Virus record (IMG/VR): IMGVR_UViG_3300024518_000549
Span: 1-29,986 of that record
Length of the DNA stretch: 29,986 nt
Reading direction: 5' to 3' (one strand)
Source: a virus
How positions within the stretch are numbered: position 1 is the stretch's first letter; the number at the start of each line of letters is the position of its first letter. The notes beneath the pieces are model-generated. The model was given only the letters and a program-made list of their open reading frames with translations, searched no databases and was not told the DNA's origin. The position numbers and the translations under genes are program-made. Shown here one piece after another: positions 4,586-24,573 of this stretch.

Positions 4586-7282
4586 TTATATTGTTGTTAA
4601 ACATTCTAGTTCTTCATCTGTAAGAGCTTCTTTAAAAACTGCTATACATTTAGTTTTACCAAAGAAATTATTACTATAAAAACCATTAAAACTTAGGTTG
4701 TTAAAAGTATTTGCAGAAGGCGTGACTCCATTTGAACTTGTTGCGACTTTGTTACCATTTATGTGTAAACTAAAATCATTAAGCTTCCATTTAAAAGCAA
4801 TTTTATAGAAAGATGTAATATCACTTACCGCTGGTCTTTCGTAAACCTGTAAAACTCCGCCAACTTCCATATATATAATAGCTCTTGATGATGATGTGAA
4901 CCCTAGTTCAATTCTATTTGAAACAGTGGCGTCATTTATAGATATAGAACCACTAAAATCAGTTAATGAAGCTATCTCTGCATATAGTACTCCCTCTGTT
5001 GAGTTTATTAAATCTGAGCTACCTGAACCAAATGCTGCATCGGCTAAACGTGTTTTTATTGACCCTTCGGTTGGTATGTATGAAGTGCTGAATGAATTTT
5101 GTTCTAATTGTGCACCCCAAGCGTAAATAGTAGCACTTGAATTAGATGGTTCTGTTCCTCTTAAACCCATTGATAACCTATCAGATGTAGCATCGCTTAC
5201 TTCAAATCTATTCCAATTAGTAGTAACTGATATTGTTTTATAACTTATATCATCAGAAGATATTTCTATGTTTATATTAACATCTGATTTTAAATAAACA
5301 GAAGAAGTGCCATTTATATCAGAACCACCATAGTCCAATCTTATTAAACTATAATCTGAATTACTTGTCGCATTCCCTTTGTTAAATATAATTTTATCAG
5401 CGTTTTGTGTTCCATCTGGAGATGTTGAATTATTAGAAGTAACAATTGGCAAAGAACCTGTACCACCATTTAATTTACTCCATTGATTAAAATCTTCTGA
5501 ATACGTTACTAAATTCGTACTCTGCGGCTCAAATAACCAGCTCCCACGTCCGCTATCTGGTACTACTTCTTGACCTAGAACTTCTTTTACAGATACGTTG
5601 TCTATGTAAGAAACTTCTCCACTTGTGCCATTACCTCTTATATAAAAATATGAATCATTTCCAGTTGTAGTTACATACCCTCCGTAAGTGTTTTCAGAAA
5701 TTAAACTTAAATTTATAGGGTTATTAACGCTATTTATATACCATTGTGGTGATAATCCGTTTGTTATATATGCTTTACAAAAATAAGTTTTTCCCGTTTC
5801 TATTGATAAGTCAGTTCTTTTAATAAAACCTTGAGAACCAACGGTTGTAACTTTAGCCATTCCGTTTTCAAGTTCTAAAGTAGAGCCAACGTGTGCTGAC
5901 CATCCATTTAAACCATCACTAAAATCACCATTACTAACCAACTCACTTCCTAAAGAATCTTGATAACTAAACCCTTCGTAGTTTATTCTAGGTAGGTTAG
6001 TGTCGTCTGTAATTTCTATTACTGAAATGTTTGATATACTATAAGAACTTCCACTAGAAGTTGTGGAATAAATTCTTAATTCTTGACCTATTGGAGCAGT
6101 AACATTAAAAGTATGTTCTCCGTTTGCATAATTTGCGTAATTAGCTAAATTACTAGCAGCTCCATCTCCTACGCCAAAAAAAGCAGTTCCACTCGTTAAG
6201 TCAGCTACTGTCAATTTTATTTGATATTTCTTATTTGCAGTAAAAACATTGCTTGAAGTTCTAATATCACCACCAATAGTATCGCTAAAAATAGCTTTGC
6301 TAGTACCAATACTCCAAGCATTCGACAAAGTCCAATCTTGTCCGACCTCTTTAACGCTTACGTTGTTTATTTTTATGTTAGGGTTTGAATTATCAGCATT
6401 CTCAATATAAATTGTTGAGTTAATAATCGGACTTAATATTTGAAAAGTATGAACACCAACCGATGTTATTTGTTTCCATTGTTGCCCAACGGTACTTTGA
6501 AAAAACACATAAACACTTGAACCTAATTCCTCTACATCTATAGTTACTTGATAATAAGTGTTAGCTTTAGTATTAAGGGTTTGATATGCTTTTGTATATA
6601 TATTAACGTTTGTCCCTATTAAAGAATTGCCTGAAATACTCCAACCAGATTGTAAACCCCAATCACTATCTGTAGCAAAATTTCCGTTTGTTACTTCCTC
6701 CGAACCCTCTTGAGAGAAATCTCCGTTAGAAACTAAGTTACCACTAAGGATTTGCACGTCTTCAATTAAACCTTGTGAGTTTACTCTTGTGGCGCTAGAA
6801 TTCCTAGTGAAATCGAAGTCTCCGTCTATTGCTTCTTTTACTGAAACGTTTGTTACTTTTCCAACAAAACTATTACTACAAAACACCCCCAAAGGCTGGT
6901 CTGATGCCCAAATATGATTTATTGTATAGACACCCGCTGAAGTTATAGTTAATGCTGGTGTACCACCAAGTCCACCATAAACATACAAAGTACCTGATAA
7001 AACTTCTGTTACATTTATTGAAATTTTATATAATCTTCCTATTACACCTAAGTCATAACTTGTTTGTGCATAAGAACCACTTACTGCTACTGCTCTAACT
7101 AATTGATTAGCCTCAATAGTCCACCCAGTTCCTAAAGTCCAACCAGTAGAGCCATTACTAAAATCGCCATTTGTCACCAGCTCTTCACTTAAAACTTCTT
7201 CAGGTTTAACACTTAATATTTTACCATTATCGTAAGATGTTGGAGTAGTTACTATACTCGCTTTTTCTAATAAATTACTCAT
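4586..7282 (-). CDS. large tail fibre/adhesin with four inserted beta-sandwich modules and LamG-like end
   Basis: The 898-residue protein shares its core with the smaller neighbour at 7476-8717. The shared pieces are a short N-terminal tip, an ATRVNSQGLIE segment (164-173), LPRINYEG (430-437), LFEPQSTNLVTYSEDF (583-598), YIPTEGSIKTRLAD (735-748) and a LamG/concanavalin-like C-terminus ending ALTDEELECLT. Four modules interrupt this core, at about 34-150, 181-312, 313-425 and 446-568. Three begin with an NGDFS-type strand and all close with a N(V/I)SV(K/I)E(V/A/I) strand, like carbohydrate-binding CBM4/9-type beta sandwiches. It probably sits on the virion surface and binds glycans on the host. 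Gene order (virion genes before, lysis genes after) fits. No enzymatic residues are recognised. Confidence 0.82.
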   Translation of the reverse strand: MSNLLEKASIVTTPTSYDNGKILSVKPEEVLSEELVTNGDFSNGSTGWTLGTGWTIEANQLVRAVAVSGSYAQTSYDLGVIGRLYKISINVTEVLSGTLYVYGGLGGTPALTITSAGVYTINHIWASDQPLGVFCSNSFVGKVTNVSVKEAIDGDFDFTRNSSATRVNSQGLIEDVQILSGNLVSNGDFSQEGSEEVTNGNFATDSDWGLQSGWSISGNSLIGTNVNIYTKAYQTLNTKANTYYQVTIDVEELGSSVYVFFQSTVGQQWKQITSVGVHTFQILSPIINSTIYIENADNSNPNIKINNVSVKEVGQDWTLSNAWSIGTSKAIFSDTIGGDIRTSSNVFTANKKYQIKLTVADLTSGTAFFGVGDGAASNLANYANYANGEHTFNVTAPIGQELRIYSTTSSGSSYSISNISVIEITDDTNLPRINYEGFSYQDSLGSELVSNGDFSDGLNGWSAHVGSTLELENGMAKVTTVGSQGFIKRTDLSIETGKTYFCKAYITNGLSPQWYINSVNNPINLSLISENTYGGYVTTTGNDSYFYIRGNGTSGEVSYIDNVSVKEVLGQEVVPDSGRGSWLFEPQSTNLVTYSEDFNQWSKLNGGTGSLPIVTSNNSTSPDGTQNADKIIFNKGNATSNSDYSLIRLDYGGSDINGTSSVYLKSDVNINIEISSDDISYKTISVTTNWNRFEVSDATSDRLSMGLRGTEPSNSSATIYAWGAQLEQNSFSTSYIPTEGSIKTRLADAAFGSGSSDLINSTEGVLYAEIASLTDFSGSISINDATVSNRIELGFTSSSRAIIYMEVGGVLQVYERPAVSDITSFYKIAFKWKLNDFSLHINGNKVATSSNGVTPSANTFNNLSFNGFYSNNFFGKTKCIAVFKEALTDEELECLTTI

Positions 7283-7476
7283 TATTCACAGTTTTCTAAG
7301 GCGGTTAATATTTCGCTAGTTCCAGTCGCATTTTCATAATACGTTGCTCTGGCTTGTAAAGTCGTTAAAAGGTTAGGCACTGCACTTGTTACCGACAAGT
7401 CAAAGTATATGCCACCCCAACCAAATTGAACTGGTAATCCCCACCAAGTTGTTTTATATATTTCTCCGTATCCCAT
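7282..7476 (-). CDS. 64-residue virion-associated protein between two fibre genes
   Basis: A small aromatic, glycine-rich protein (MGYGEIYKTTWWGLPVQFGW) with a helical C-terminal half. It has TAATG junctions on both sides, to the small fibre gene upstream and the large fibre gene downstream. The "GEIYxxTWWG" opening is reminiscent of short proteins placed among fibre genes of Bacteroidota phages. A structural adaptor between fibres is possible; the function is unknown. Confidence 0.72.
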   Translation of the reverse strand: MGYGEIYKTTWWGLPVQFGWGGIYFDLSVTSAVPNLLTTLQARATYYENATGTSEILTALENCE

Positions 7477-8717
7477 TATGTTGTTAATTTTATTATTTCT
7501 TCATCTGTTAAAGCGTTCCCAAAAACTTGTGAATTGTAAATCTCACCTTCAAAATTTAAGTAGTCATCATTACCTTGAAATTGAAATATATTTAATTCAC
7601 TAAATAATCTATTAGTGTCTAAATAACTATTTAAAAGTTGTCCGTTTGCAAAAAGCTTATAGCTTCCGCTATCCCATTTAACCGCTACTTTAAGCCTTCC
7701 GCCATTGTGCGTAAAATTATAATTAACTATTGGAGAACTAGGAAACTCATTTATAAAAAACTGTAAAACGTTTGAAGTTTTAAATGCGAATTGTATTAAA
7801 TTGAATGTCCCACCTCGTAAACTTATTACGTTACCAAGTGTATCACTAGAAGCAACCGCAAAAGGTTTAACGTCTAAAAAAACCACTCCTTTATTTTTGT
7901 TAAAATCTGTTTCAGCTTTAACCTTACGCTCCAATTCTCTTGTAACGGTACTGCCTTCCGTTTTAATGTAGCTGCTTAAATAGTTACCTTCTTCAAGTTG
8001 TGCCCCCCAGAAATAATTATAATCGCCTTTAGTGACAGTAAGATTTCCATTTGATGTTGTTCCGTAAATGTAAGGTCTTACAGTTGTGTTTCCAGAAGTT
8101 TCACAAGTGATGGATATTCTATACCACCCATTTGTAAAAGATTCAATGCTGTTATCTATTAACGTTATTTCGCTTCCAGTTGTTTGAGGGGTGAAAGATG
8201 TTCCTTTTCCTAAATCAAAAAATATACTTGAATAATCTGTTTCAGCGTCATTAAACAAGGCTAAGTTGCAATATGTAGCATTTCCTTTTTTAGCAAAAAC
8301 TGATAAAACAATAGTTGAACCGCTTGTAATTGAAGCAGACCCCCTAAGTCTCATTCCAAGAACGCTAGACGAATTACATTCTAATTTGTCAGCGGTTTCA
8401 GTTCCTTCTGGTGAAACGTCTTCGTTTGCTGTTACAGTTGTTCTTGTTTTTAGCCATAAAGCATTATCAAATTCTTCGCTTCTTAATTGTCTGTTTGTTC
8501 TACTTCCTTCCATTAAAAGGCTAGGACAATCACCACTCCAATTCAAGCGTGGGTTATTTGAGCCTACAATTGTTTCAATTAAACCGTTTTCTTTTACTCT
8601 AGTTGCATCGCCAATCCTAAAAAAATCAAAATCTCCATCACCATCAACTGGTAAAACAGAATAAACTTTGCTGTTTTTATATCCGCTTGGTATTATTGCT
8701 AGTATTGGGTTTTCCAT
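7476..8717 (-). CDS. tail fibre/receptor-binding protein with CBM-like and LamG-like domains
   Basis: I place the start at ATG 8717 (MENPILAIIPSG), which overlaps the upstream stop codon as TAATG. The frame is open to 8759, but that region lies inside the previous gene. The 413-residue protein begins with a tip followed by DATRVKENGLIE (37-48) and PRLNW (56-60). Residues 70-240 look like a carbohydrate-binding beta sandwich (SEEFDNALW, WYRISITCET, YFWGAQLEEG). After SYIKTEGSTVTR comes a LamG/concanavalin-like domain ending ALTDEEIIKLTT. It is a paralogue of the 898-residue protein without the inserted modules. It probably binds surface glycans on the host. Confidence 0.82.
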   Translation of the reverse strand: MENPILAIIPSGYKNSKVYSVLPVDGDGDFDFFRIGDATRVKENGLIETIVGSNNPRLNWSGDCPSLLMEGSRTNRQLRSEEFDNALWLKTRTTVTANEDVSPEGTETADKLECNSSSVLGMRLRGSASITSGSTIVLSVFAKKGNATYCNLALFNDAETDYSSIFFDLGKGTSFTPQTTGSEITLIDNSIESFTNGWYRISITCETSGNTTVRPYIYGTTSNGNLTVTKGDYNYFWGAQLEEGNYLSSYIKTEGSTVTRELERKVKAETDFNKNKGVVFLDVKPFAVASSDTLGNVISLRGGTFNLIQFAFKTSNVLQFFINEFPSSPIVNYNFTHNGGRLKVAVKWDSGSYKLFANGQLLNSYLDTNRLFSELNIFQFQGNDDYLNFEGEIYNSQVFGNALTDEEIIKLTT

Positions 8718-9169
8718 TATCTTTCTATTATTATTGAAGTAGTAGCACAGTACCACCATTCACCGTTCACTTGTAGTCTTAACGTTACTGTTTCCCCTTT
8801 ATTTATTTCTATTGACCTACCAAAATCTAAAACTACTGATTCCCTTACGTTGTTTCCGTAAGTATCTGTTTCACTACCTTTTAAAACACCATCTACATAA
8901 ACACTTAAAGTCAAAGAGCTTCCACTAGGAAACTGCCTAGAACTATAAGGCATTGACGATATAATAAATTGACTAAAATAACCATTAAACGGCACTGGAA
9001 TACCACCATAAGAGAACGGAAACGTTGTACTAGAACCATTATCATAAAGCGTGTAGGTATTAACACCACTGATATAATGTCTCCAAGTCACAGATATTTT
9101 TTCAGTCGTTAAACCTCTGCTTGTGTATTCTACTGACTTCGCTCTTATAAGGTTATTTGTAGAAATCAT
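8717..9169 (-). CDS. beta-rich virion protein, fibre-base candidate
   Basis: The 150-residue protein has dense Ser/Thr/Tyr/Gly beta-strand patterning (ISVTWRHYISG, SSLTLSVYVDGVLKGSET, GETVTLRLQVNGEWWY) with no catalytic motif, signal peptide or TM segment. It lies between a very small basic gene (ATGA overlap) and the first fibre gene (TAATG overlap). It could be an attachment piece for fibres or a minor capsid decoration; I cannot choose between them. Confidence 0.72.
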   Translation of the reverse strand: MISTNNLIRAKSVEYTSRGLTTEKISVTWRHYISGVNTYTLYDNGSSTTFPFSYGGIPVPFNGYFSQFIISSMPYSSRQFPSGSSLTLSVYVDGVLKGSETDTYGNNVRESVVLDFGRSIEINKGETVTLRLQVNGEWWYCATTSIIIER

Positions 9170-15977: not shown

Positions 15978-17777
15978 TTATATTGTAGCTCCTTCAACTA
16001 TATTGTTTTCTAAACTTTGTGCTGTTGTCACATCGTTTGAAACTACATAAGCTTGAACTGGTTCGTTTGTTTGACTTGCAACCGCATCACCTAAAGCACT
16101 TGTTTCACTTGCACCAACTACGTTAAAACTTGGGGGGGTTGGAGCAGCACCAACCGAAGCACCACCACCAGCCGAAGCACCGCCACCACCGTTTGGAACT
16201 TTAGTCTTTTTAATGTTTTGTATTTGCTTCATACCAGCAAACACTGCAGCACCTGCTGCTGCAACCCCTAATGCTGGGCCGACCACAGGAATACCAGCTA
16301 AAGAAGCGTAAGAACTTTGAGCAGATTGATAGGTTTGTATTAAGGTAGATGCAATGGCTAAAGCCTTACCAGCAGCAGTCTCTTTACCAGCCAATTCTGA
16401 GAATGAACTTAAAGCGTTTCCGACTTTCGCTAAATTTTCTTCTTTTGCCTTAGTTGTTTTATCATCTAATTCTTTATTTGTAGCTTCAATTTCTTTTTTC
16501 TTGGTTGCTATTGCTACATCATTAGTTAGATTTGTTTGTCTTGATTGCTCTGTAAACTCGTCAAGTGCTATCTGTGCATCAATCTTTGCTTGTGTTTCTG
16601 CATTTGCATTATCAACAACAGCTTGTAGTCTTGCAGATTCTTGGGTTGCATATTCTTCATCAATAGCTTTTAAGGCTTCTAATTTTAAAACCTCATCTTC
16701 TATTTGTTCAGCATTAAACCTTTTTCGCTCTATTGATAAAGTGCTTTCACTTTCTAGCTTTGAGTTTGTAAGCTCTATCTGTTCCCTATCTAATGCTAAA
16801 TCGTTTGCTTTTTGTTCTGACCTAAAACCTTCTATTTGAGCCAAAACCCCTAACCTATTAGCTAAGGCATCTGTGACCGCTACTTGGTTTTCAATAGAAT
16901 TGTTTTTAGCTGCTTCGGCTTGTGCTGATGCAAGTTGAGCGTCTGCGGTTGCTAACATTGCTTTCTCCTGTTGTTCTAAAACAAGTAAAAGTTCGTCATT
17001 TGCTTTTTTACGTTCGCTTATGCTGTTACGTTCTTCATCGCGTATTTGTCTAAGTTGCTCGGCTTGTCTGTCGTACTTCTCAACTAAAAGTGTTTGTTGT
17101 GCTGCTGCTAATTCAGCGGAATTTGCTAGTTTAACATTTTCTTGTGCTGCTTTTAAAGTTTCTGTTGCATAATTCTTAACCGCTTCAGCTGACTTCTCAA
17201 CAAACTCTTTGCCTTTATCAAAAGAATCATTAACACCTGTTAAAACATCTAGACTTTCTTTACCAGCACTTTTAACGTCATCTAAAGCACCAGCAAAATC
17301 GCCACTAAATACTTTTTTAACGGCACTAGCTAGGTAGCCTAAAGTATCTAAGTAACTATCAAATCGTTCCTGTATGTTTTCTTTAAATGCCTTAGCAAAA
17401 CTTTTTAAAGATTCTAAAGGGTTTTTAAATATAGCATCAAAAAACTTAATGACCCCGCCTGTATTATTAACAATAAAATTAACAAAGTCGTTAAATACAA
17501 TACTTACAGCTTCAAAGGTTGTGTTGAATATATCAGCAACTTTTTGGTTTTGCATAAAAACCTCGCCAAGCTTTGCTAATGCAGCCACAACCAATCCAAT
17601 ACCTGTTGCTTTTATAGCTGTACCCAGACCCTTAAAGCCTTTCGATGCTGCTGACGTTCCTTTTTCTACATTTGCAGTTGCATCACCTAAGCTGACTAAA
17701 CCAGAATTAACTTGCTCTATTCCTTTGACAGCACCTTTACTATCTACGTTTAAATTAATAGTTTTTTCTATTGCCAT
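15978..17777 (-). CDS. tape measure protein
   Basis: The 599-residue protein opens with MAIEKTINLNVDSKGAVKGI and a helical region with VNSGLVSLGDATANVEKG. A hydrophobic segment (GIGLVVAALAKLGEVFM) is followed by a long Ala/Glu/Lys-rich coiled-coil body (about 190-455) and a second hydrophobic stretch VVGPALGVAAAGAAVFAG. After a Gly/Ala-rich linker it ends PVQAYVVSNDVTTAQSLE. This layout is typical of tape measures in Bacteroidota siphophages. At about 0.15 nm per residue it predicts a tail near 90 nm, supporting a siphovirus. It is shorter than many tape measures but in proportion to a 30-kb genome. Confidence 0.88.
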   Translation of the reverse strand: MAIEKTINLNVDSKGAVKGIEQVNSGLVSLGDATANVEKGTSAASKGFKGLGTAIKATGIGLVVAALAKLGEVFMQNQKVADIFNTTFEAVSIVFNDFVNFIVNNTGGVIKFFDAIFKNPLESLKSFAKAFKENIQERFDSYLDTLGYLASAVKKVFSGDFAGALDDVKSAGKESLDVLTGVNDSFDKGKEFVEKSAEAVKNYATETLKAAQENVKLANSAELAAAQQTLLVEKYDRQAEQLRQIRDEERNSISERKKANDELLLVLEQQEKAMLATADAQLASAQAEAAKNNSIENQVAVTDALANRLGVLAQIEGFRSEQKANDLALDREQIELTNSKLESESTLSIERKRFNAEQIEDEVLKLEALKAIDEEYATQESARLQAVVDNANAETQAKIDAQIALDEFTEQSRQTNLTNDVAIATKKKEIEATNKELDDKTTKAKEENLAKVGNALSSFSELAGKETAAGKALAIASTLIQTYQSAQSSYASLAGIPVVGPALGVAAAGAAVFAGMKQIQNIKKTKVPNGGGGASAGGGASVGAAPTPPSFNVVGASETSALGDAVASQTNEPVQAYVVSNDVTTAQSLENNIVEGATI

Positions 17778-17913: not shown

Positions 17914-20490
17914 TTAGTTTGAATTTATAAATATATCAGAATCAAATGATGAACCTTCGTTTGAACCAACAGTATAAACAGCTCTTAAAGAAATTTTGTA
18001 AGTTGTTTTATTTTCTAAAGACGTAATTGTTTTGCTCGTTCCTGTTTCTGAGCTTAAAAATTCATTGTTTAAATAAATATCGTACCTATCAAAATTAGGG
18101 TCTGTAATAGCTCCCCACTGCAATCCGATACTTGTACCCCCCTGACTAGTTATCTCTAAACCTTGTACCCTTCCGAAGCTTCCTATTTGTCCATTAATCT
18201 GTTGTCTTGTATCTGCTTGAAGGTTATACAATTCCAAGTCACTCTTGTTTGTTAATAGGTTTGTTTTTATACTGTTTATTCTGTATTCTGTTTTATCAAT
18301 AATAAAGATGTCGTTTAAGTTATATTTTAAAATTATATTTAAAGGTAGATAAGCTGACACTTTTGTTTTACGTGAATTTCTAGCAAATAAATTAGCCACA
18401 TAATTTCTGTAATACTTAGTAAATAAATCATTTGATTGATTAAGTTGGGCGGCAGTCCCAGAGCCTAAAGTGTATTCGTCAATCTCTACGCCAAAATTTA
18501 AAGTTTCTGTTAAAAACCCTGTTGTTGTATTCGATATAGAATTAGAAGGTCTTAAATAGCTACTTATTCCAGTAAGCGTATTGTCTAAGTTATCCCATAA
18601 TAAATTAGTGGTTGATGTTGAAGTAGAAGCTGCATAAAACAATAAAGGCTTTCCTATCGTTGGTTCAAATTTCTTGTCCAACATTGCACCTTGTCCAATT
18701 GTTGTAAGTGTTCCGTTATCTTCATCGCTCAAACGTTCGTACATCATTTTTTCAAAATCAAGCTCTATCTTGTAGTTGCTTCCATCCCATTCATCATTCC
18801 CATAACTTTCTTGTGCAAATACATTGCCTTGTAATTCTTCTGCATATTGAACCAGAAAAGATTTTTTACTTTTAAAATCAAAAACCATATTTTTAAACTG
18901 CAATAGCTTTGACACTGAAGATTTACTTGTGTCCACATATTCGGTAATGTCATAAGATACACCAGCGTTATAATAGTCATCTAAAGGTAAAACATTAATA
19001 ATTCCATCTTCTTTGTATGCAGTTAAATTGTACATTAAAAACAAGTTCTTTAGAAAATCAAATATTTTCATCTTAGGTATTTGCCTACTTATTGTAATTG
19101 TGTTTTCTGATGCTGGTGCGTCTTTTTCATAAGTAGATTGGCGAATAGTTGTAAACTGCCCACCGCCATTGTCAAAAACTTCTTTAACTAACAAACTTTG
19201 TGAAATTCCAACAGTGTTTTCGGCATTTATATTTATTACTGAAAGTATTGGCATCTCTCCATAAGTTTGAGGGGTAAAGTCATAGCGGAATGTTTGCGTC
19301 CCAGTTCCACTTTCTTCAAATAAAGTTGCACTATTTGACCCCCTTAGTATTTGTACGTCATAACTTTGATTTTGGTCAAGTGTTGTAACTGTTAAATAAA
19401 ATTCATATACTATATAACCAACAAACAAAGGTTCATTTGTGTAACGAGGTCTTGCGATTCTAAGCTCGTCACCGCTTACAAGTTCGTAGTTATTTCCTGT
19501 ATCATCTGGTTGGAAGAATAAATTAGAAATATTTTGAACTCCACCGCCTTCAATAGAATTTGATAAAAACCCTTCCTCTCTGTGAAGCCACATATATAAT
19601 TTCCTAAAGTTTGGACTATTAAAAAATTCTTCGCTAAACTTAATTTGTGGATAAGTTGTTTCTATTGCATCAATAATAACTTTAGTTTTTAAAGCTGGTT
19701 TTAAATCTGCGAAGTTTATCCAATTATCTGTTATGTGGTCTTTGTATTGTCCATTTTTATATCTCATATTTTTACTGTGAGTTATAAGAGGGAATATTAA
19801 GTCATCACCTTCAGCAGTACCAATAAACTTACTTCTAACGAAATCGTTAGTTAAAACGAAATTTAAAGAATCAGGATATGTTAAAGAGCTTAATTCATTC
19901 TCTGCTAGTAGTTCTTTAAACTCAACCGTTTCACCAGTAAATACTAATTTATAAGAATAAGCTACATTGTTTTTTAAATCAACTGAAGTAAGACGCATCT
20001 TACCAGACTTGTAATTAACGCCATTTAGCTGAATAAGTCCATCGCCTTGATACCTAGCATCAAAACTATTATTAACATCCACGTCATAGTAATGCTTAAA
20101 GAACTTATTATTGTGCTTAGAAGCTGGAACGCTAAACTGTTGGCTAAAGGGTGCAAATATCTTTGCTGGGTCTTTTACATTCTGAATAGTGTCTGTAATT
20201 GAAACGCTCTCGTCATTAAATAATTCTAGCTTTGTAAAGTCATCATATATTTGATATGTTTTTGACCCTGAAAATATACCGCCACTAATATCTAAAGTAT
20301 CGTTTCCGCTTGGAGCTATTGCAGTAATCTTTCCTTCAATTCCTGTTGATATATCTTTGATGATTTGCCCTACACTAAAGTTCCCATTTGTGAAATCTGT
20401 TGAAGTATCTACAAGTCTAGTCGATGATGGAAAGTAACCATCGCTAGTAAATTTATTACCACCTCTAATATATAAGTCAATTATCTGCAT
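17914..20490 (-). CDS. large tail tip/baseplate protein with C-terminal fibronectin III-like domain
   Basis: The 858-residue protein has a conserved-looking N-terminal region with DPAKIFAPFSQQFSVPASKHNN (about 108-129) and NKFFKHYYDVDVNNSFDARY just after. It then has the family block LNGVNYKSGKMRLTSVDLKN, and a middle region with RQIPKMKIFDFLKNLFLMYN that resembles tail-tip (hub) folds. The final about 90 residues (LEITSQGGTSIGLQWGAITD, then YDIYLNNEFL and TSLENKTTYKISLRAVY) form a fibronectin type III-like domain. It is encoded between another tail protein and the tape measure. It probably forms the tail tip that touches the host and retains the tape measure. Confidence 0.78.
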   Translation of the reverse strand: MQIIDLYIRGGNKFTSDGYFPSSTRLVDTSTDFTNGNFSVGQIIKDISTGIEGKITAIAPSGNDTLDISGGIFSGSKTYQIYDDFTKLELFNDESVSITDTIQNVKDPAKIFAPFSQQFSVPASKHNNKFFKHYYDVDVNNSFDARYQGDGLIQLNGVNYKSGKMRLTSVDLKNNVAYSYKLVFTGETVEFKELLAENELSSLTYPDSLNFVLTNDFVRSKFIGTAEGDDLIFPLITHSKNMRYKNGQYKDHITDNWINFADLKPALKTKVIIDAIETTYPQIKFSEEFFNSPNFRKLYMWLHREEGFLSNSIEGGGVQNISNLFFQPDDTGNNYELVSGDELRIARPRYTNEPLFVGYIVYEFYLTVTTLDQNQSYDVQILRGSNSATLFEESGTGTQTFRYDFTPQTYGEMPILSVININAENTVGISQSLLVKEVFDNGGGQFTTIRQSTYEKDAPASENTITISRQIPKMKIFDFLKNLFLMYNLTAYKEDGIINVLPLDDYYNAGVSYDITEYVDTSKSSVSKLLQFKNMVFDFKSKKSFLVQYAEELQGNVFAQESYGNDEWDGSNYKIELDFEKMMYERLSDEDNGTLTTIGQGAMLDKKFEPTIGKPLLFYAASTSTSTTNLLWDNLDNTLTGISSYLRPSNSISNTTTGFLTETLNFGVEIDEYTLGSGTAAQLNQSNDLFTKYYRNYVANLFARNSRKTKVSAYLPLNIILKYNLNDIFIIDKTEYRINSIKTNLLTNKSDLELYNLQADTRQQINGQIGSFGRVQGLEITSQGGTSIGLQWGAITDPNFDRYDIYLNNEFLSSETGTSKTITSLENKTTYKISLRAVYTVGSNEGSSFDSDIFINSN

Positions 20491-21606
20491 CTATCTTATG
20501 TTGTTTATAGTGTCAAAAGCAAAGTCTATTTTTATAGTGTAGTTAATTAGCTTGTCGTTAAGACTAGTTTTATAACTGAAGCTAGAATCTGTTACATTTA
20601 TTGGTAAAACATTCCCATCTATTTCTATCCAACAGTCCTCGCTTAATTGCATTTGTTTAAAGACTTCGTTGTATGCTTCTGGATAAAACCCTGTGTTTAA
20701 GTCCATTTTTTCAGTACCCATTTTAAAAAGGTTCTTCTGTTGGTGCTTATCTACTGCATAGCTATTTGATACAAGTGTATTTCTTTTGAAAGATTCTTTT
20801 TTAGTTGATAGTTGTTTATTGCTTCGCTTAAAAAACCATATATCTTGCAATGCTCCAAACTTGTTTATAAAACTTAATTTGTAAGGCTCGTATTTGCATT
20901 CTTCAATATTATCTACTTTGATTAAATCAACGCTTCCAACTATTGAGTTTATATATATAGTATCAACTGGAAATAAAGCCGTACTATCTAAGAACTGATT
21001 TAAACAAAGACTACCTTCAAAAGTACCACCATCATTTAAAACCCTTTCTTCAAATTCATCTGCTGGGTTTATTGTATTGGTTACATATTGTATTTGAGTT
21101 GATGACCCAGATGTTACACTAAAGTTTTTTTCATATAGCTGCTGACCATTTGAGTAAAAATAAACGTTGGATACTTTGCTAGTATCAACAGGCAAATAAA
21201 TAGGAGCATCGTCTAGCTTTACTATTGTTAAATTAGACTGTAATAAACCAGAATCATTTTGTGGGTTTATACCTTGCTCAAAATAACCATAACCATAAAA
21301 CCCTTTATTAAGTACGATAGGTAGCGTAGTTTCAGTACCAGCAACAATCTTTGTGATTTCATAATCAACCCAGACTATTTCTGTTTCGTAGTCATCAGCG
21401 TTATAAGTTATATAATCTCTTACAAGTTCAGCAATCTCAAAGTTCACTGTATTATTAACCGCTAAGGCACTAAGGTTGTAGGTTTCCAGAGTTGGTCTGC
21501 TTGTTGTTTGCGTCCCTGTGTATATCCAAACTTTTAATGTCGCAAATGTTAAAAGCGTTTCGTTTAAATATACATAGTAAGGACTTCTTACATTAATTTT
21601 TGCCAT
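20491..21606 (-). CDS. tail protein, distal-tail-like candidate
   Basis: The 371-residue beta-rich protein has an N-terminal domain (MAKINVRSPYYVYLNETLLT) with NFEIAELVRDYI. The C-terminal block includes LSFINKFGALQDIWFFKRSN, and then LNTGFYPEAYNEVFKQMQLS (about 308-327). That second block is one I associate with tail proteins of Bacteroidota siphophages. It abuts the tail-tip gene with no spacing. It may link the tube to the tip (distal-tail role) but the assignment is positional. Confidence 0.7.
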   Translation of the reverse strand: MAKINVRSPYYVYLNETLLTFATLKVWIYTGTQTTSRPTLETYNLSALAVNNTVNFEIAELVRDYITYNADDYETEIVWVDYEITKIVAGTETTLPIVLNKGFYGYGYFEQGINPQNDSGLLQSNLTIVKLDDAPIYLPVDTSKVSNVYFYSNGQQLYEKNFSVTSGSSTQIQYVTNTINPADEFEERVLNDGGTFEGSLCLNQFLDSTALFPVDTIYINSIVGSVDLIKVDNIEECKYEPYKLSFINKFGALQDIWFFKRSNKQLSTKKESFKRNTLVSNSYAVDKHQQKNLFKMGTEKMDLNTGFYPEAYNEVFKQMQLSEDCWIEIDGNVLPINVTDSSFSYKTSLNDKLINYTIKIDFAFDTINNIR

Positions 21607-21607
21607 C

Positions 21608-22138
21608 TTATCGTTCTGTTAATTTTATTAAATCTTTTTCTAGTCCTATTGAATAGGCTTTTATTAATTCATCTGGAAGCCTTTTAAATGCAGCTACAAA
21701 TGGTTTAGTAAAAAACAAACTAGGTTTAATTCCTTTTTGATATATACTTCTAGCAATTAAAAACGCAGTACTTTGGTAGCTTAAAAACCGCCCTGTCTTT
21801 CTGTCTTTAAATTGTATCCTACGTCTTTTAACATAGCTTTGCATTGCTTCGGTTAAACCACCTTTCTTTCCTGTACCACTGCCAAACTTAAAAGGACTGT
21901 TCGGTGCTTTACTGCTTGATGACTTACCTCTAACCCCTTTGTCTTGAAACTCTCCGTATTGTTCCATTTCAAAACCCAGCTCAGCTCCTTTAGCTGTTAG
22001 CTCTACATTATAACCTAAACTGTTATAAAGTCCCTTAGTGTCGTTCTTATCGCTTTTAGATAGATTGCTTCTGGATTGCTGTATAACGTACTTAGCGAAC
22101 TTATTTAATTCTTCTTGTAGGGCTTTGTCTGCTAACAT
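21608..22138 (-). CDS. HK97 gp10-like head-tail joining/tail component
   Basis: The 176-residue protein has a helical N-terminus (LQEELNKFAKYVIQQSRSNL), then DTKGLYNSLGYNVEL and a beta segment with GFEMEQYGEFQDKGVRGKSS. A basic loop follows (SYVKRRRIQFKDRKTGRFLS), then ARSIYQKGIKPSLFFTKPF and a helical end. The EYGxFQDKGVRG and FFTKPF features fit HK97 gp10-like neck proteins. It overlaps the tail terminator-like gene by 7 nt. Confidence 0.72.
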   Translation of the reverse strand: MLADKALQEELNKFAKYVIQQSRSNLSKSDKNDTKGLYNSLGYNVELTAKGAELGFEMEQYGEFQDKGVRGKSSSSKAPNSPFKFGSGTGKKGGLTEAMQSYVKRRRIQFKDRKTGRFLSYQSTAFLIARSIYQKGIKPSLFFTKPFVAAFKRLPDELIKAYSIGLEKDLIKLTER

Positions 22139-22602
22139 ATCTCAATGTCGTTGTTTACCAATATATCAAACGTTGCAGTCCAACCAGCTACTTTGTTTTC
22201 AAACCTATCCACAAACGGCTCAAGACTTGCGTCACCATCCAATTGATATTTGTCGTTGTATAAATCGCCACGTCTTAAAACTTGCACTAACTTATTTAAT
22301 ACAGCTAGTTGTGTATTTAATACGTCTTGTTCATTATTGTTTCCTATAAATATATCTGAAGTTGGTTCTTTGCTTTCGTCCACTATATCCATTGCAAGGA
22401 TAGAAATGTTAAACCTTAAAACGCTCTCTTGTGCTGTGACAGTATTAACTATTAAATGCGATAAAGGAAATATAGTTTGCTTAGACAAATCAACATCAAA
22501 CAAATCACCCTCTGAGACAGTGTTTACATTTATATCGCCTAGTAAAGCGTCTTTAATAGTTTGGGTCAATAAGTAGTAACCCCTTATTCCAGTTTGGCTC
22601 AT
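22132..22602 (-). CDS. tail terminator/completion-like protein
   Basis: The 156-residue protein reads SQTGIRGYYLLTQTIKDALL, then IFPLSHLIVNTVTAQESVLR, NISILAMDIVDESKEP, DVLNTQLAVLNKLVQVLRRG, EPFVDRFENKVAGWTATFDI and ends in NNDIEIC. The alternation of two helices and four strands with "PFxDRFxNxVAGW" matches tail terminator/completion proteins of siphophages I know from Bacteroidota. It starts ATGA-coupled to the frameshift product and precedes the gp10-like gene. It would cap the tail tube and join it to the head. Confidence 0.7.
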   Translation of the reverse strand: MSQTGIRGYYLLTQTIKDALLGDINVNTVSEGDLFDVDLSKQTIFPLSHLIVNTVTAQESVLRFNISILAMDIVDESKEPTSDIFIGNNNEQDVLNTQLAVLNKLVQVLRRGDLYNDKYQLDGDASLEPFVDRFENKVAGWTATFDILVNNDIEIC

Positions 22603-22853
22603 TTGAATTTGCTTTTAATATTCCTTGCTTCTATTTCGTTTTTTTCTTTTGTATATGTTAAGTATGTCAAACACTCGTGGACATTTAGTTTAGTGATATT
22701 TTCAAACCTTGTAATATCTCCGTTAGCGATTGCATAGATTGAATTGTACCATCCCCATTTGGCTGTGAAGCCAGAAATTGCACTAAGCTCTCCTCGTTCT
22801 GTTTGCTCGAAGAGTTCAGGATAACTGTCGATAAGTCCCTCCCTAAATCGTAA
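22599..22853 (-). CDS. -1 frame extension of the tail assembly chaperone (gpGT-like)
   Basis: This frame is read after a -1 slip at 22853-22859 and adds 84 residues to the first 159 of the upstream protein, giving a 243-residue fusion. The extension reads LRFREGLIDSYPELFEQTER, has tryptophan-rich GFTAKWGWYNSIYAIANGDI, and ends with EARNIKSKFK. Its stop is ATGA-coupled to the tail terminator-like gene. A GTG at 22877 could start it independently, but that codon lies inside the upstream gene with no clear leader, so fusion is more likely. Together the two products would be the short and long tail chaperones that coat the tape measure during tail assembly. Confidence 0.8.
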   Translation of the reverse strand, partial: LRFREGLIDSYPELFEQTERGELSAISGFTAKWGWYNSIYAIANGDITRFENITKLNVHECLTYLTYTKEKNEIEARNIKSKFK

Positions 22854-23329
22854 AAAAAAACCATAGCACCAAAACACGCATCTAAAGGATAGTTCTTAGC
22901 TTCTTCGTTTGTGTCTGGGTCGTATTCTTTTAAAGTGTACCTTGTGTTTTTCTTTAAGTCAATAGGTCTGTATAAAACATTCATAGCCCTATGCAAGTTA
23001 TCGTTATCACCCATAAATGTATCTAAGTCCACATACTCACCAAAACTCATATTTTCCAAGTCTGGAATAAAACCGTAGTCTTTACCATTCATTTGAAACC
23101 TATTTATAAGCTGGTGTTCTACGTCAAACATATTATTGATGATAACACAAATATCTGTTATATCTTTTGCTTTCATTGAACGTACAACCTCAACAGGCAC
23201 TTTACAGAATATCTCAATCATCTTAGATTGCACTTCTGATTCCTTTGTAATATCTAATTTTGAAAACTCCTGATACTGCCCTAGAGTGATTTCATTTAAC
23301 GTTGTTGGTATGCTTAACTTTACTTCCAT
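22685..23329 (-). CDS. tail assembly chaperone, short (zero-frame) product
   Basis: The zero-frame product has 214 residues, opening MEVKLSIPTTLNEITLGQYQ, with helical segments FSKLDITKESEVQSKMIEIF and PVEVVRSMKAKDITDICVII. The slippery codons are F158-F159, and the frame then continues 55 further codons (DLGRDLSTVILNSSSKQ...) to TAA. Both frames stay open over about 168 bases, which is unusual unless both are used. It follows TerL after 35 bases, with TATATATTAAT before the ATG. Siphophages usually carry a chaperone with this frameshift close to the tape measure gene. Confidence 0.8.
   Translation of the reverse strand: MEVKLSIPTTLNEITLGQYQEFSKLDITKESEVQSKMIEIFCKVPVEVVRSMKAKDITDICVIINNMFDVEHQLINRFQMNGKDYGFIPDLENMSFGEYVDLDTFMGDNDNLHRAMNVLYRPIDLKKNTRYTLKEYDPDTNEEAKNYPLDACFGAMVFFYDLGRDLSTVILNSSSKQNEESLVQFLASQPNGDGTIQSMQSLTEILQGLKISLN
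22853..22859 (-). promoter_or_regulatory. programmed -1 ribosomal frameshift site, U UUU UUU
   Basis: A run of nine T on the minus strand (22860-22852) gives the heptamer U UUU UUU in the correct phase (V157 GUU, F158 UUU, F159 UUU, Y160 UAC). Slipping back one base leads into the 84-residue extension. No obvious stimulatory hairpin was found by eye. Confidence 0.8.
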
Positions 23330-23364: not shown

Positions 23365-24573
23365 CTAAGATACAGTATATTTACCCCTGTTTGGGTTTTG
23401 TAGTTGAAAGCCTACTGCATAACGAACCGCATCTATTAAGTGATTCCAATTGTCTATTGGTGTATTTGACTTGCGTTCTAGCCAACGGTAGTTGTTTAGT
23501 TCCTTAATTAAGTTAGTGCTATCTGGACTTACTATAATATCATAGTCTTGTAATAAGCTAATGCCATAAGTAACACTCCCCTGTCCTTTTATACTTGGAC
23601 GTACATTACAACCCTTTGCTTTTATTTCGCTTAGTAGTCTAGGTTCAGCACTATCCCCAACGATTAAACCCTCTCTAGCGTGTTTTAAATTAAGCTGTGC
23701 TATTTGTGACGTTGTTAGTCTTTGTAAATAAAAACATTCCTTTAAATATATTCTTTTATTTGTGCTATCAATATTAACTTCAACTAGTGTGCTAGGGTCA
23801 GCTGCGAAACCATAATCTTGACCCCATACGCTTGTGCCTATATGTTTGAATTCACCTACACTCCAATTATTAAATATAACCCCCTCAGCTTTGTTTAGCC
23901 ACGAGCCTAGCATTTGCTGTTTATACTTCTCTGGACGTCTTATCTTCATTTGCTCTATTTGTTCTATATAGCTTTTAGATAAGTTGTCTATGTTATCTTG
24001 ATAAGTAGTGTGTATGTATGTAGTATTTTCTTTAGTTATATTACTACCTTCTTGCACCCCTCTATCTTCAAAGAAACGTCTATATATGAAATGCTCTTTT
24101 GTAGTTGGGTTTAGTATTAATATTATTCTGTTTGGTTTGCCTTGCTGCCTTACTGACAAATCAATAGTGTCAAACTTTTGTTCATCGACTAGTTCCTCTG
24201 CTTCATCAACAACCCACGTTGTAATACCTTGTAAAGATTTTAAGTTAGCTGTCTGGTCACCGCTAGATGTTTTTATACCTCTGAATATTATTTTACTACC
24301 AGTCTTTTTGTTTAGTATCTCGTCTTTGGTTATATGGAAGTCTGCTATTGAGCCGAACTGTTCTAGCTTGTCAATAAATTCTGGAATGATTGATATGTAA
24401 GCTGAGGTTAATGTGTAACGAGTAAACAGTATCGTGTGACCTTGTTCATATGTTAGCATCACTAAAAGGGCGTTTACTGAAAAAGACTTCCCAGAACCAC
24501 GCCCACCACTAATAATAAAATACCTACTGTCTGAATCAACAATAGGCATATATTTCTTTTTTACTTTAATCAA
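23365..24573 (-). CDS. terL: terminase large subunit (ATPase/nuclease)
   Basis: The 402-residue protein has both terminase domains. Walker A is GGRGSGKS (23-30), Walker B is TTWVVDEAEEL (118-128, D123 E124), and the coupling motif is ILNPTT (153-158). The RNase H-like nuclease has GQDYGFAADP (D253), VGDSAEP (D307) and HLIDAVRYA (H378, D381). It is a complete, short terminase_3/6-type enzyme. It overlaps TerS by 8 nt, and its N-terminus MIKVKKKYMP fits the start at 24573. It pumps DNA through the portal and cuts the concatemer. Packaging strategy cannot be read from the gene, but circular closure of the contig would suit headful (pac) packaging. Confidence 0.95.
   Translation of the reverse strand: MIKVKKKYMPIVDSDSRYFIISGGRGSGKSFSVNALLVMLTYEQGHTILFTRYTLTSAYISIIPEFIDKLEQFGSIADFHITKDEILNKKTGSKIIFRGIKTSSGDQTANLKSLQGITTWVVDEAEELVDEQKFDTIDLSVRQQGKPNRIILILNPTTKEHFIYRRFFEDRGVQEGSNITKENTTYIHTTYQDNIDNLSKSYIEQIEQMKIRRPEKYKQQMLGSWLNKAEGVIFNNWSVGEFKHIGTSVWGQDYGFAADPSTLVEVNIDSTNKRIYLKECFYLQRLTTSQIAQLNLKHAREGLIVGDSAEPRLLSEIKAKGCNVRPSIKGQGSVTYGISLLQDYDIIVSPDSTNLIKELNNYRWLERKSNTPIDNWNHLIDAVRYAVGFQLQNPNRGKYTVS

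What the first reader, a model, noticed from the sequence alone, without database searches (positions are those of the whole stretch)
22599..23329. Probable programmed -1 frameshift joins two tail chaperone frames
The heptamer U UUU UUU (22859-22853) lies in the zero-frame phase. A -1 slip yields a continuous 243-residue protein whose extension (84 residues) has protein-like composition, and its stop is coupled to the next gene. Both frames are open for over 160 bases. Frameshifted tail chaperones are established for lambda and many siphophages. Its position next to TerL rather than beside the tape measure is unusual.
Basis: partly seen in the sequence, partly recalled or inferred. Interest (0 to 1): 0.75.

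Follow-up and report, generated by a model that had tools for sequence, protein, structure and literature searches.

The report
Frameshifted phage tail chaperone at T9
This phage makes two versions of one tail-building helper protein by slipping at a run of nine T's, and a run of at least nine is kept in 345 of 346 distinct related sites, which suggests that the slip may be made by the copying enzyme (RNA polymerase) rather than only by the ribosome.

Summary
ORF 23329-22685 (-) carries T9 (22860-22852). A shift to the -1 frame gives a 243-residue product whose last 84 residues end in an ATGA overlap with the next gene.

It is neither chance nor a read error. All 346 distinct related sites found keep the same -1 relation. 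The run is T9 in 324 sites, T10 in 19, T11 in 2 and T8 in 1. Both C-termini are under selection, and 250 of 346 sites have no start codon from which the extension could be made separately.

Its place in the tail module, upstream of the tape measure gene, supports a lambda G/GT-type tail assembly chaperone. Two PHROG families of unknown function (32199, 38404) are its halves.

That is possible but not shown. Run length is conserved beyond the heptamer: four lineages at 17-22% identity lack the 5' T but have two T's on the 3' side, keeping T9 in a new codon register. One flavobacterial genome avoids A/T runs only from nine bases on and does not avoid in-phase heptamers. No downstream RNA structure was found. 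This resembles transcriptional slippage. I give RNA polymerase 0.50, ribosome 0.35, both 0.15.

Recoded tail chaperones are known; this is a new variant.

The parts
22685..23329 (-). Zero-frame chaperone ORF, 214 aa (G-like product)
   Evidence: phrog_32199 E 1e-21 and weak phrog_166 (tail) E 1e-4; conserved in all relatives
22852..22860 (-). T9 slip tract
   Evidence: nine or more T's in 345 of 346 distinct sites
22853..22859 (-). In-phase heptamer T_TTT_TTT inside the tract
   Evidence: the Leu codon just before it is CTT in 62 of 62 cases of the first set although CTT is about 14% of Leu codons
22599..22853 (-). -1 frame extension, 84 aa plus stop (T-like domain)
   Evidence: 80-92 codons and open in 200 of 200 full-length loci; motif RWGWY/KWGWY
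22685..22853 (-). Dual-coding overlap
   Evidence: Third-position entropy falls from 1.23 upstream to 0.76 here
22132..22602 (-). Next gene (phrog_30964, unknown function), start overlaps the extension stop (ATGA)
   Evidence: homologue downstream in 190 of 191 loci
23365..24573 (-). Terminase large subunit, upstream neighbour
   Evidence: phrog_2 E 1.6e-44
21608..22138 (-). phrog_29822 tail-module gene
20491..21606 (-). phrog_35281 tail-module gene
17914..20490 (-). phrog_38559 tail-module gene with a C-terminal fn3 domain
15978..17777 (-). Probable tape measure protein, 599 aa
   Evidence: phrog_9483 and phrog_3336 tape measure matches; sequence

Best explanation
The gene is a lambda G/GT-type tail assembly chaperone of a flavobacterial siphophage. 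Most expression gives the 214-aa zero-frame protein. A minority of events shift into the -1 frame at the T9 tract and give a 243-aa protein with an 84-aa helical C-terminal domain. By analogy with lambda, the shared N-terminal domain would bind the tape measure protein and the extension would recruit the tail tube protein. Shown by comparison: the -1 relation, the T9 tract, selection on both C-termini, lack of a general start for a separate extension, and gene order. Inferred: chaperone function and product ratio. Which machine slips is unresolved: host RNA polymerase adding one U on T9 (0.50), tandem tRNA slippage on U_UUU_UUU (0.35), or both (0.15). The confidence below is for the recoded tail chaperone, not for the choice of machine.
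For: 346 of 346 distinct sites keep the -1 relation and 345 have nine or more T's, in 21 clusters at 50% identity. Extension always 80-92 codons while the zero-frame tail varies from 16 to 84. Both frames constrained in the overlap. No ATG/GTG/TTG for a separate extension in 250 of 346. Gene order TerL - chaperone - phrog_30964 - 29822 - 35281 - 38559 - tape measure, also in a flavobacterial prophage. Nonlabens phage P12024L has the same arrangement. For polymerase slippage: run length kept at nine in a new codon register in four remote lineages, Fisher p 0.0008 to 0.00007; one flavobacterial chromosome avoids A/T runs only from nine on, 15 against 95 expected, and not in-phase T7/T8; no downstream structure; RNA polymerase slips efficiently at nine A or T (PMC5009743).
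Against: No confident sequence or PDB fold match to a characterised chaperone. All experimentally studied tail chaperone recodings I know of are ribosomal. For polymerase slippage: the outer T's are also held by hydrophobic residues in both frames in most members; avoidance of long runs may come from replication slippage; T8 occurs once (L522); the lineages tested are not fully independent.
Confidence: 0.86

Rival explanations
1. Purely ribosomal -1 frameshifting: P- and A-site tRNA-Phe slip together on U_UUU_UUU, as in lambda on G_GGA_AAG, and T9 is only a by-product of flanking hydrophobic residues in the two frames.
For: The heptamer is in phase in every case, since a T9 always holds one. 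Known tail chaperone recodings are ribosomal (PMC5009743). The low efficiency expected of a plain U_UUU_UUU would suit the low fusion ratio known from lambda.
Against: T9 length kept in a shifted register in four lineages; no downstream structure above shuffles; the host genome sampled does not avoid in-phase T7/T8; no other slippery heptamer is ever used in 346 sites.
Confidence: 0.35
2. Sequencing or assembly error, or a decaying gene: the true sequence has one continuous frame.
For: Homopolymers are error-prone; some BFVD chains align to both domains in one protein.
Against: The same count in hundreds of independent contigs, in a cultured phage and in a near-complete chromosome; both frames under selection; T10 and T11 variants keep the frames, so they are substitutions.
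Confidence: 0.01
3. Two separate proteins: the -1 extension is translated from its own start inside the first gene.
For: GenBank annotates P12024L_40 and _41 as two genes; a GTG lies upstream in the -1 frame of the window.
Against: 250 of 346 sites have no ATG/GTG/TTG between the upstream -1 stop and the conserved Arg of the extension, and only 3 have ATG; conservation of the -1 frame begins at the tract.
Confidence: 0.03
4. A genuine recoded protein, but not a tail assembly chaperone; some other low-copy tail or head component.
For: No confident homology or fold match to a characterised chaperone; position beside TerL.
Against: G/GT-like architecture and size, helical extension, place upstream of the tape measure gene; weak matches to phrog_166 (tail) and to an annotated tail assembly chaperone.
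Confidence: 0.1

Closest known systems
Phage lambda gpG/gpGT tail assembly chaperone
   Same: Two overlapping ORFs in -1 relation, slip near the end of the first, fused longer product, tail module upstream of the tape measure gene
   Different: Slip tract is T9 instead of G_GGA_AAG; gene sits right behind TerL with four genes before the tape measure gene; zero-frame tail behind the slip is long (55 codons here) and dual-coding; no sequence similarity detected
Programmed transcriptional slippage at nine A or T (Thermus dnaX; Shigella mxiE and spa13; IS elements)
   Same: A nine-base homopolymer as the conserved signal; conserved extension in a shifted frame; host avoids runs of nine or more in coding sequence
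   Different: No transcript data here; no report of it in a phage tail chaperone was found in the papers searched
Nonlabens phages P12024L and P12024S (Inhavirus), proteins 40 and 41
   Same: Direct homologue: CTT TTT TTT TAT tract, same -1 extension, behind TerL
   Different: 30% identical; zero-frame tail only 25 codons after the slip; annotated as two hypothetical proteins

Membership tests
Lambda G/GT-type tail assembly chaperones | Two overlapping ORFs joined by a -1 frame transition | tested here: met
   346 of 346 distinct sites
Lambda G/GT-type tail assembly chaperones | Both products conserved (short and fused) | tested here: met
   Codon-position entropy and open-frame tests
Lambda G/GT-type tail assembly chaperones | Encoded in the tail module upstream of the tape measure gene | tested here: met
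   Tape measure 15978-17777, four genes downstream in the same direction; same order in L524; not directly adjacent
Lambda G/GT-type tail assembly chaperones | Sequence or fold homology to a characterised member | tested here: inconclusive
   No PDB match; weak phrog_166; one annotated chaperone in BFVD at E 0.058
Lambda G/GT-type tail assembly chaperones | N-domain binds tape measure protein, extension binds tube protein, neither in the virion | not testable with these tools
   Needs biochemistry
Programmed -1 ribosomal frameshift | In-phase X_XXY_YYZ heptamer | tested here: met
   T_TTT_TTT at 22859-22853
Programmed -1 ribosomal frameshift | Stimulatory structure downstream (common, not obligatory) | tested here: inconclusive
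   No excess of nested structure in 63 sequences; pseudoknots not tested
Programmed -1 ribosomal frameshift | Ribosome changes frame on a uniform mRNA | not testable with these tools
   Needs translation of a homogeneous mRNA
Programmed transcriptional slippage | Run of nine or more A or T, conserved in length | tested here: met
   345 of 346 sites; nine kept in another register in four lineages
Programmed transcriptional slippage | Conserved extension in the frame reached by adding one base | tested here: met
   One added U gives the same VFFL... junction and the -1 extension
Programmed transcriptional slippage | Transcripts heterogeneous in run length | not testable with these tools
   Needs cDNA deep sequencing

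The most novel reading that the evidence does not exclude
In tailed phages and prophages of Bacteroidota the tail chaperone extension is made by RNA polymerase slippage on a T9 tract (one extra U in part of the transcripts) instead of, or as well as, ribosomal frameshifting, so that a tail assembly ratio is set at transcription.
Probability: 0.5. Interest if true: 0.72.

Novelty: new variant of a known kind. Interest (0 to 1): 0.52.

Why it matters
It identifies the tail assembly chaperone, annotated so far as two unrelated hypothetical proteins, in a large group of Bacteroidota phages. It offers a natural set of hundreds of T9 sites, some of them in a shifted codon register, on which ribosomal and transcriptional slippage can be told apart. 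If polymerase slippage is right, different phage groups reach the same two-product output at two levels of gene expression, as is known for dnaX in bacteria.

Tried and rejected
Downstream RNA structure: none above shuffles (nested structure only). Homology or fold match in PDB: none of weight. Pfam: nothing significant. tblastn of the extension against cultured phages: nothing with one query, weak Nonlabens hits with another. Single-frame homologues: none in 346 DNA sites, although BFVD chains such as A0A516L611 align to both domain models; their DNA could not be fetched. T9 as rare by itself: rejected, a synonymous shuffle gives 0.53 per window. L518 was set aside as a false match (stops inside, no N-domain). 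Flavobacterium phage 6H as a fellow case: its -1 frame closes directly behind T_TTT_TTC, so no fusion path was found there. Structure of the whole fusion was not attempted, because a -1 fusion is not a direct translation of the DNA.

Full report
Observation. The zero-frame ORF 23329-22685 (-) reads GTT TTT TTT TAC at 22861-22850, so the T9 tract 22860-22852 holds an in-phase T_TTT_TTT. The -1 reading from the tract is LRFREGLIDSYPELF...NIKSKFK, 84 aa, ending in TGA inside ATGA with the start of the next gene.

Relatives. Relatives were drawn from IMG/VR, GTDB genomes and cultured phages. In the first 80 loci, 50-100% identical, all readable sites had the tract in the same phase; one had T10 by TAC to TTC. 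Nonlabens phage P12024L, 30% identical, has CTT TTT TTT TAT and an extension with the shared FSLKWGWY motif, but GenBank lists two hypothetical proteins. Some scans used a peptide pattern that covers the site (FFYHLGND). Two others did not: one from the extension alone (all 80 loci have nine or more T's) and one from the N-terminal half (every locus that reaches far enough has the -1 extension). Pooled and de-duplicated there are 346 sites, with the -1 relation in 346: T9 324, T10 19, T11 2, T8 1; 96 clusters at 70% and 21 at 50% single-linkage identity.

Both products are selected. In 200 loci that span the region the extension is always 80-92 codons, the zero-frame tail 16-84 codons, and the third frame closes after 1-6 codons, after 2 in 197. 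In 37 representatives the third-position entropy is 1.23 before the tract; in the overlap it drops to 0.76 and the three positions are nearly level; behind the zero-frame stop the -1 third position is the variable one (0.96 against 0.48 and 0.37). Given one frame's amino acids, the other would be open with mean probability 0.002-0.004. A start codon for a separate extension is missing in 250 of 346 sites.

Identity. TerL lies upstream; phrog_30964, 29822, 35281, 38559 and a tape measure protein follow downstream, the same order as in a flavobacterial prophage (L524). PHROG 32199 and 38404, both of unknown function, correspond to the N-domain and to a piece of the extension. AlphaFold gives an N-domain model (pLDDT 79) whose helix 149-173 runs through the slip point, and a helical extension (pLDDT 74). 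No PDB fold matched; viral models did, among them one weak match annotated as a tail assembly chaperone. Several BFVD chains align to both domain models, which supports a real fused protein. Chaperone function is inferred from architecture and gene order, not from homology to a characterised protein.

Ribosome or polymerase. The heptamer needs seven T's; nine are kept. In four remote lineages (L431, L519, L520, L521; 17-22% identical to each other) the codon before Phe-Phe is GGT, GCT, ACT or TAT, so the 5' T is absent, and in all four the codon after is TTG or TTA, which makes exactly nine. Against the other clusters Fisher p runs from 0.0008 to 0.00007 with the cluster cut-off; the clusters are not fully independent. 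In 0.94 Mb of coding sequence from one flavobacterial chromosome that carries such a prophage, A/T runs of 6-8 are at or above expectation, while runs of nine or more number 15 against 95 expected (Poisson 2e-24), and in-phase T7/T8 are not avoided. A second, smaller sample points the same way (10 against 22). Phage genes other than the chaperone avoid T7 both in and out of phase. No downstream structure was found. From the literature: bacterial RNA polymerase slips efficiently in vivo at nine A or T (PMC5009743); avoidance in many genomes starts at nine (PMC1088944); U_UUU_UUU is a weaker ribosomal site than A_AAA_AAG in E. coli (PMC5009743). Replication slippage could also cause the avoidance, and hydrophobic residues in the two frames could hold the outer T's in most members, so I stop at 0.50 polymerase, 0.35 ribosome, 0.15 both. 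No paper found in the held library reports transcriptional slippage in a tail chaperone.

Verdict. A real, conserved, programmed recoding of a probable tail assembly chaperone: a known kind of gene with an unusually rigid T9 signal, possibly read by a different machine from the one assumed.

Noticed in passing
L082 3001-3695 (JQ823123.1 23946-24640): Nonlabens phage P12024L proteins 40 and 41 are annotated as two hypothetical proteins but are the two frames of this recoded gene; phrog_32199 and phrog_38404 inherit the split.
   Followed up: yes
L346 10927-10048 (-), Flavobacterium phage 6H: gp10 (191 aa, distant fold match) is followed by about 300 unannotated bases with a -1 frame chaperone-like ORF, but the -1 frame stops directly behind its T_TTT_TTC; how the two would be joined is unclear.
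   Followed up: partly
L526-L545, L566-L605 (G217 chromosome sample): Sharp cliff in A/T homopolymer length in coding sequence: lengths 6-8 as expected or above, nine or more about six-fold depleted.
   Followed up: partly
phage loci, genes other than the chaperone: T7 and T8 on the coding strand are depleted in phage genes, in and out of phase, more than A7 and A8.
   Followed up: no
L522 (G1105:C6), about 8769: The only T8 tract among 346 sites (GCC GTT TTT TTT ATA), in one of the most remote relatives.
   Followed up: partly
L211 from 2977: The zero frame of this relative stops after 119 codons while tract and extension are intact; decay or assembly error in that contig.
   Followed up: no
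4586-7282 and 7476-8759 (-): Two neighbouring genes both match phrog_5939 (tail protein), possibly a partial duplication.
   Followed up: no
BFVD A0A516L611, A0A516L5A8, A0A6J5SVK3, A0A6J7WDG4 and others: Predicted single chains that align to both the N-domain and the extension models; natural fusions, annotated joins or run-length variants.
   Followed up: partly
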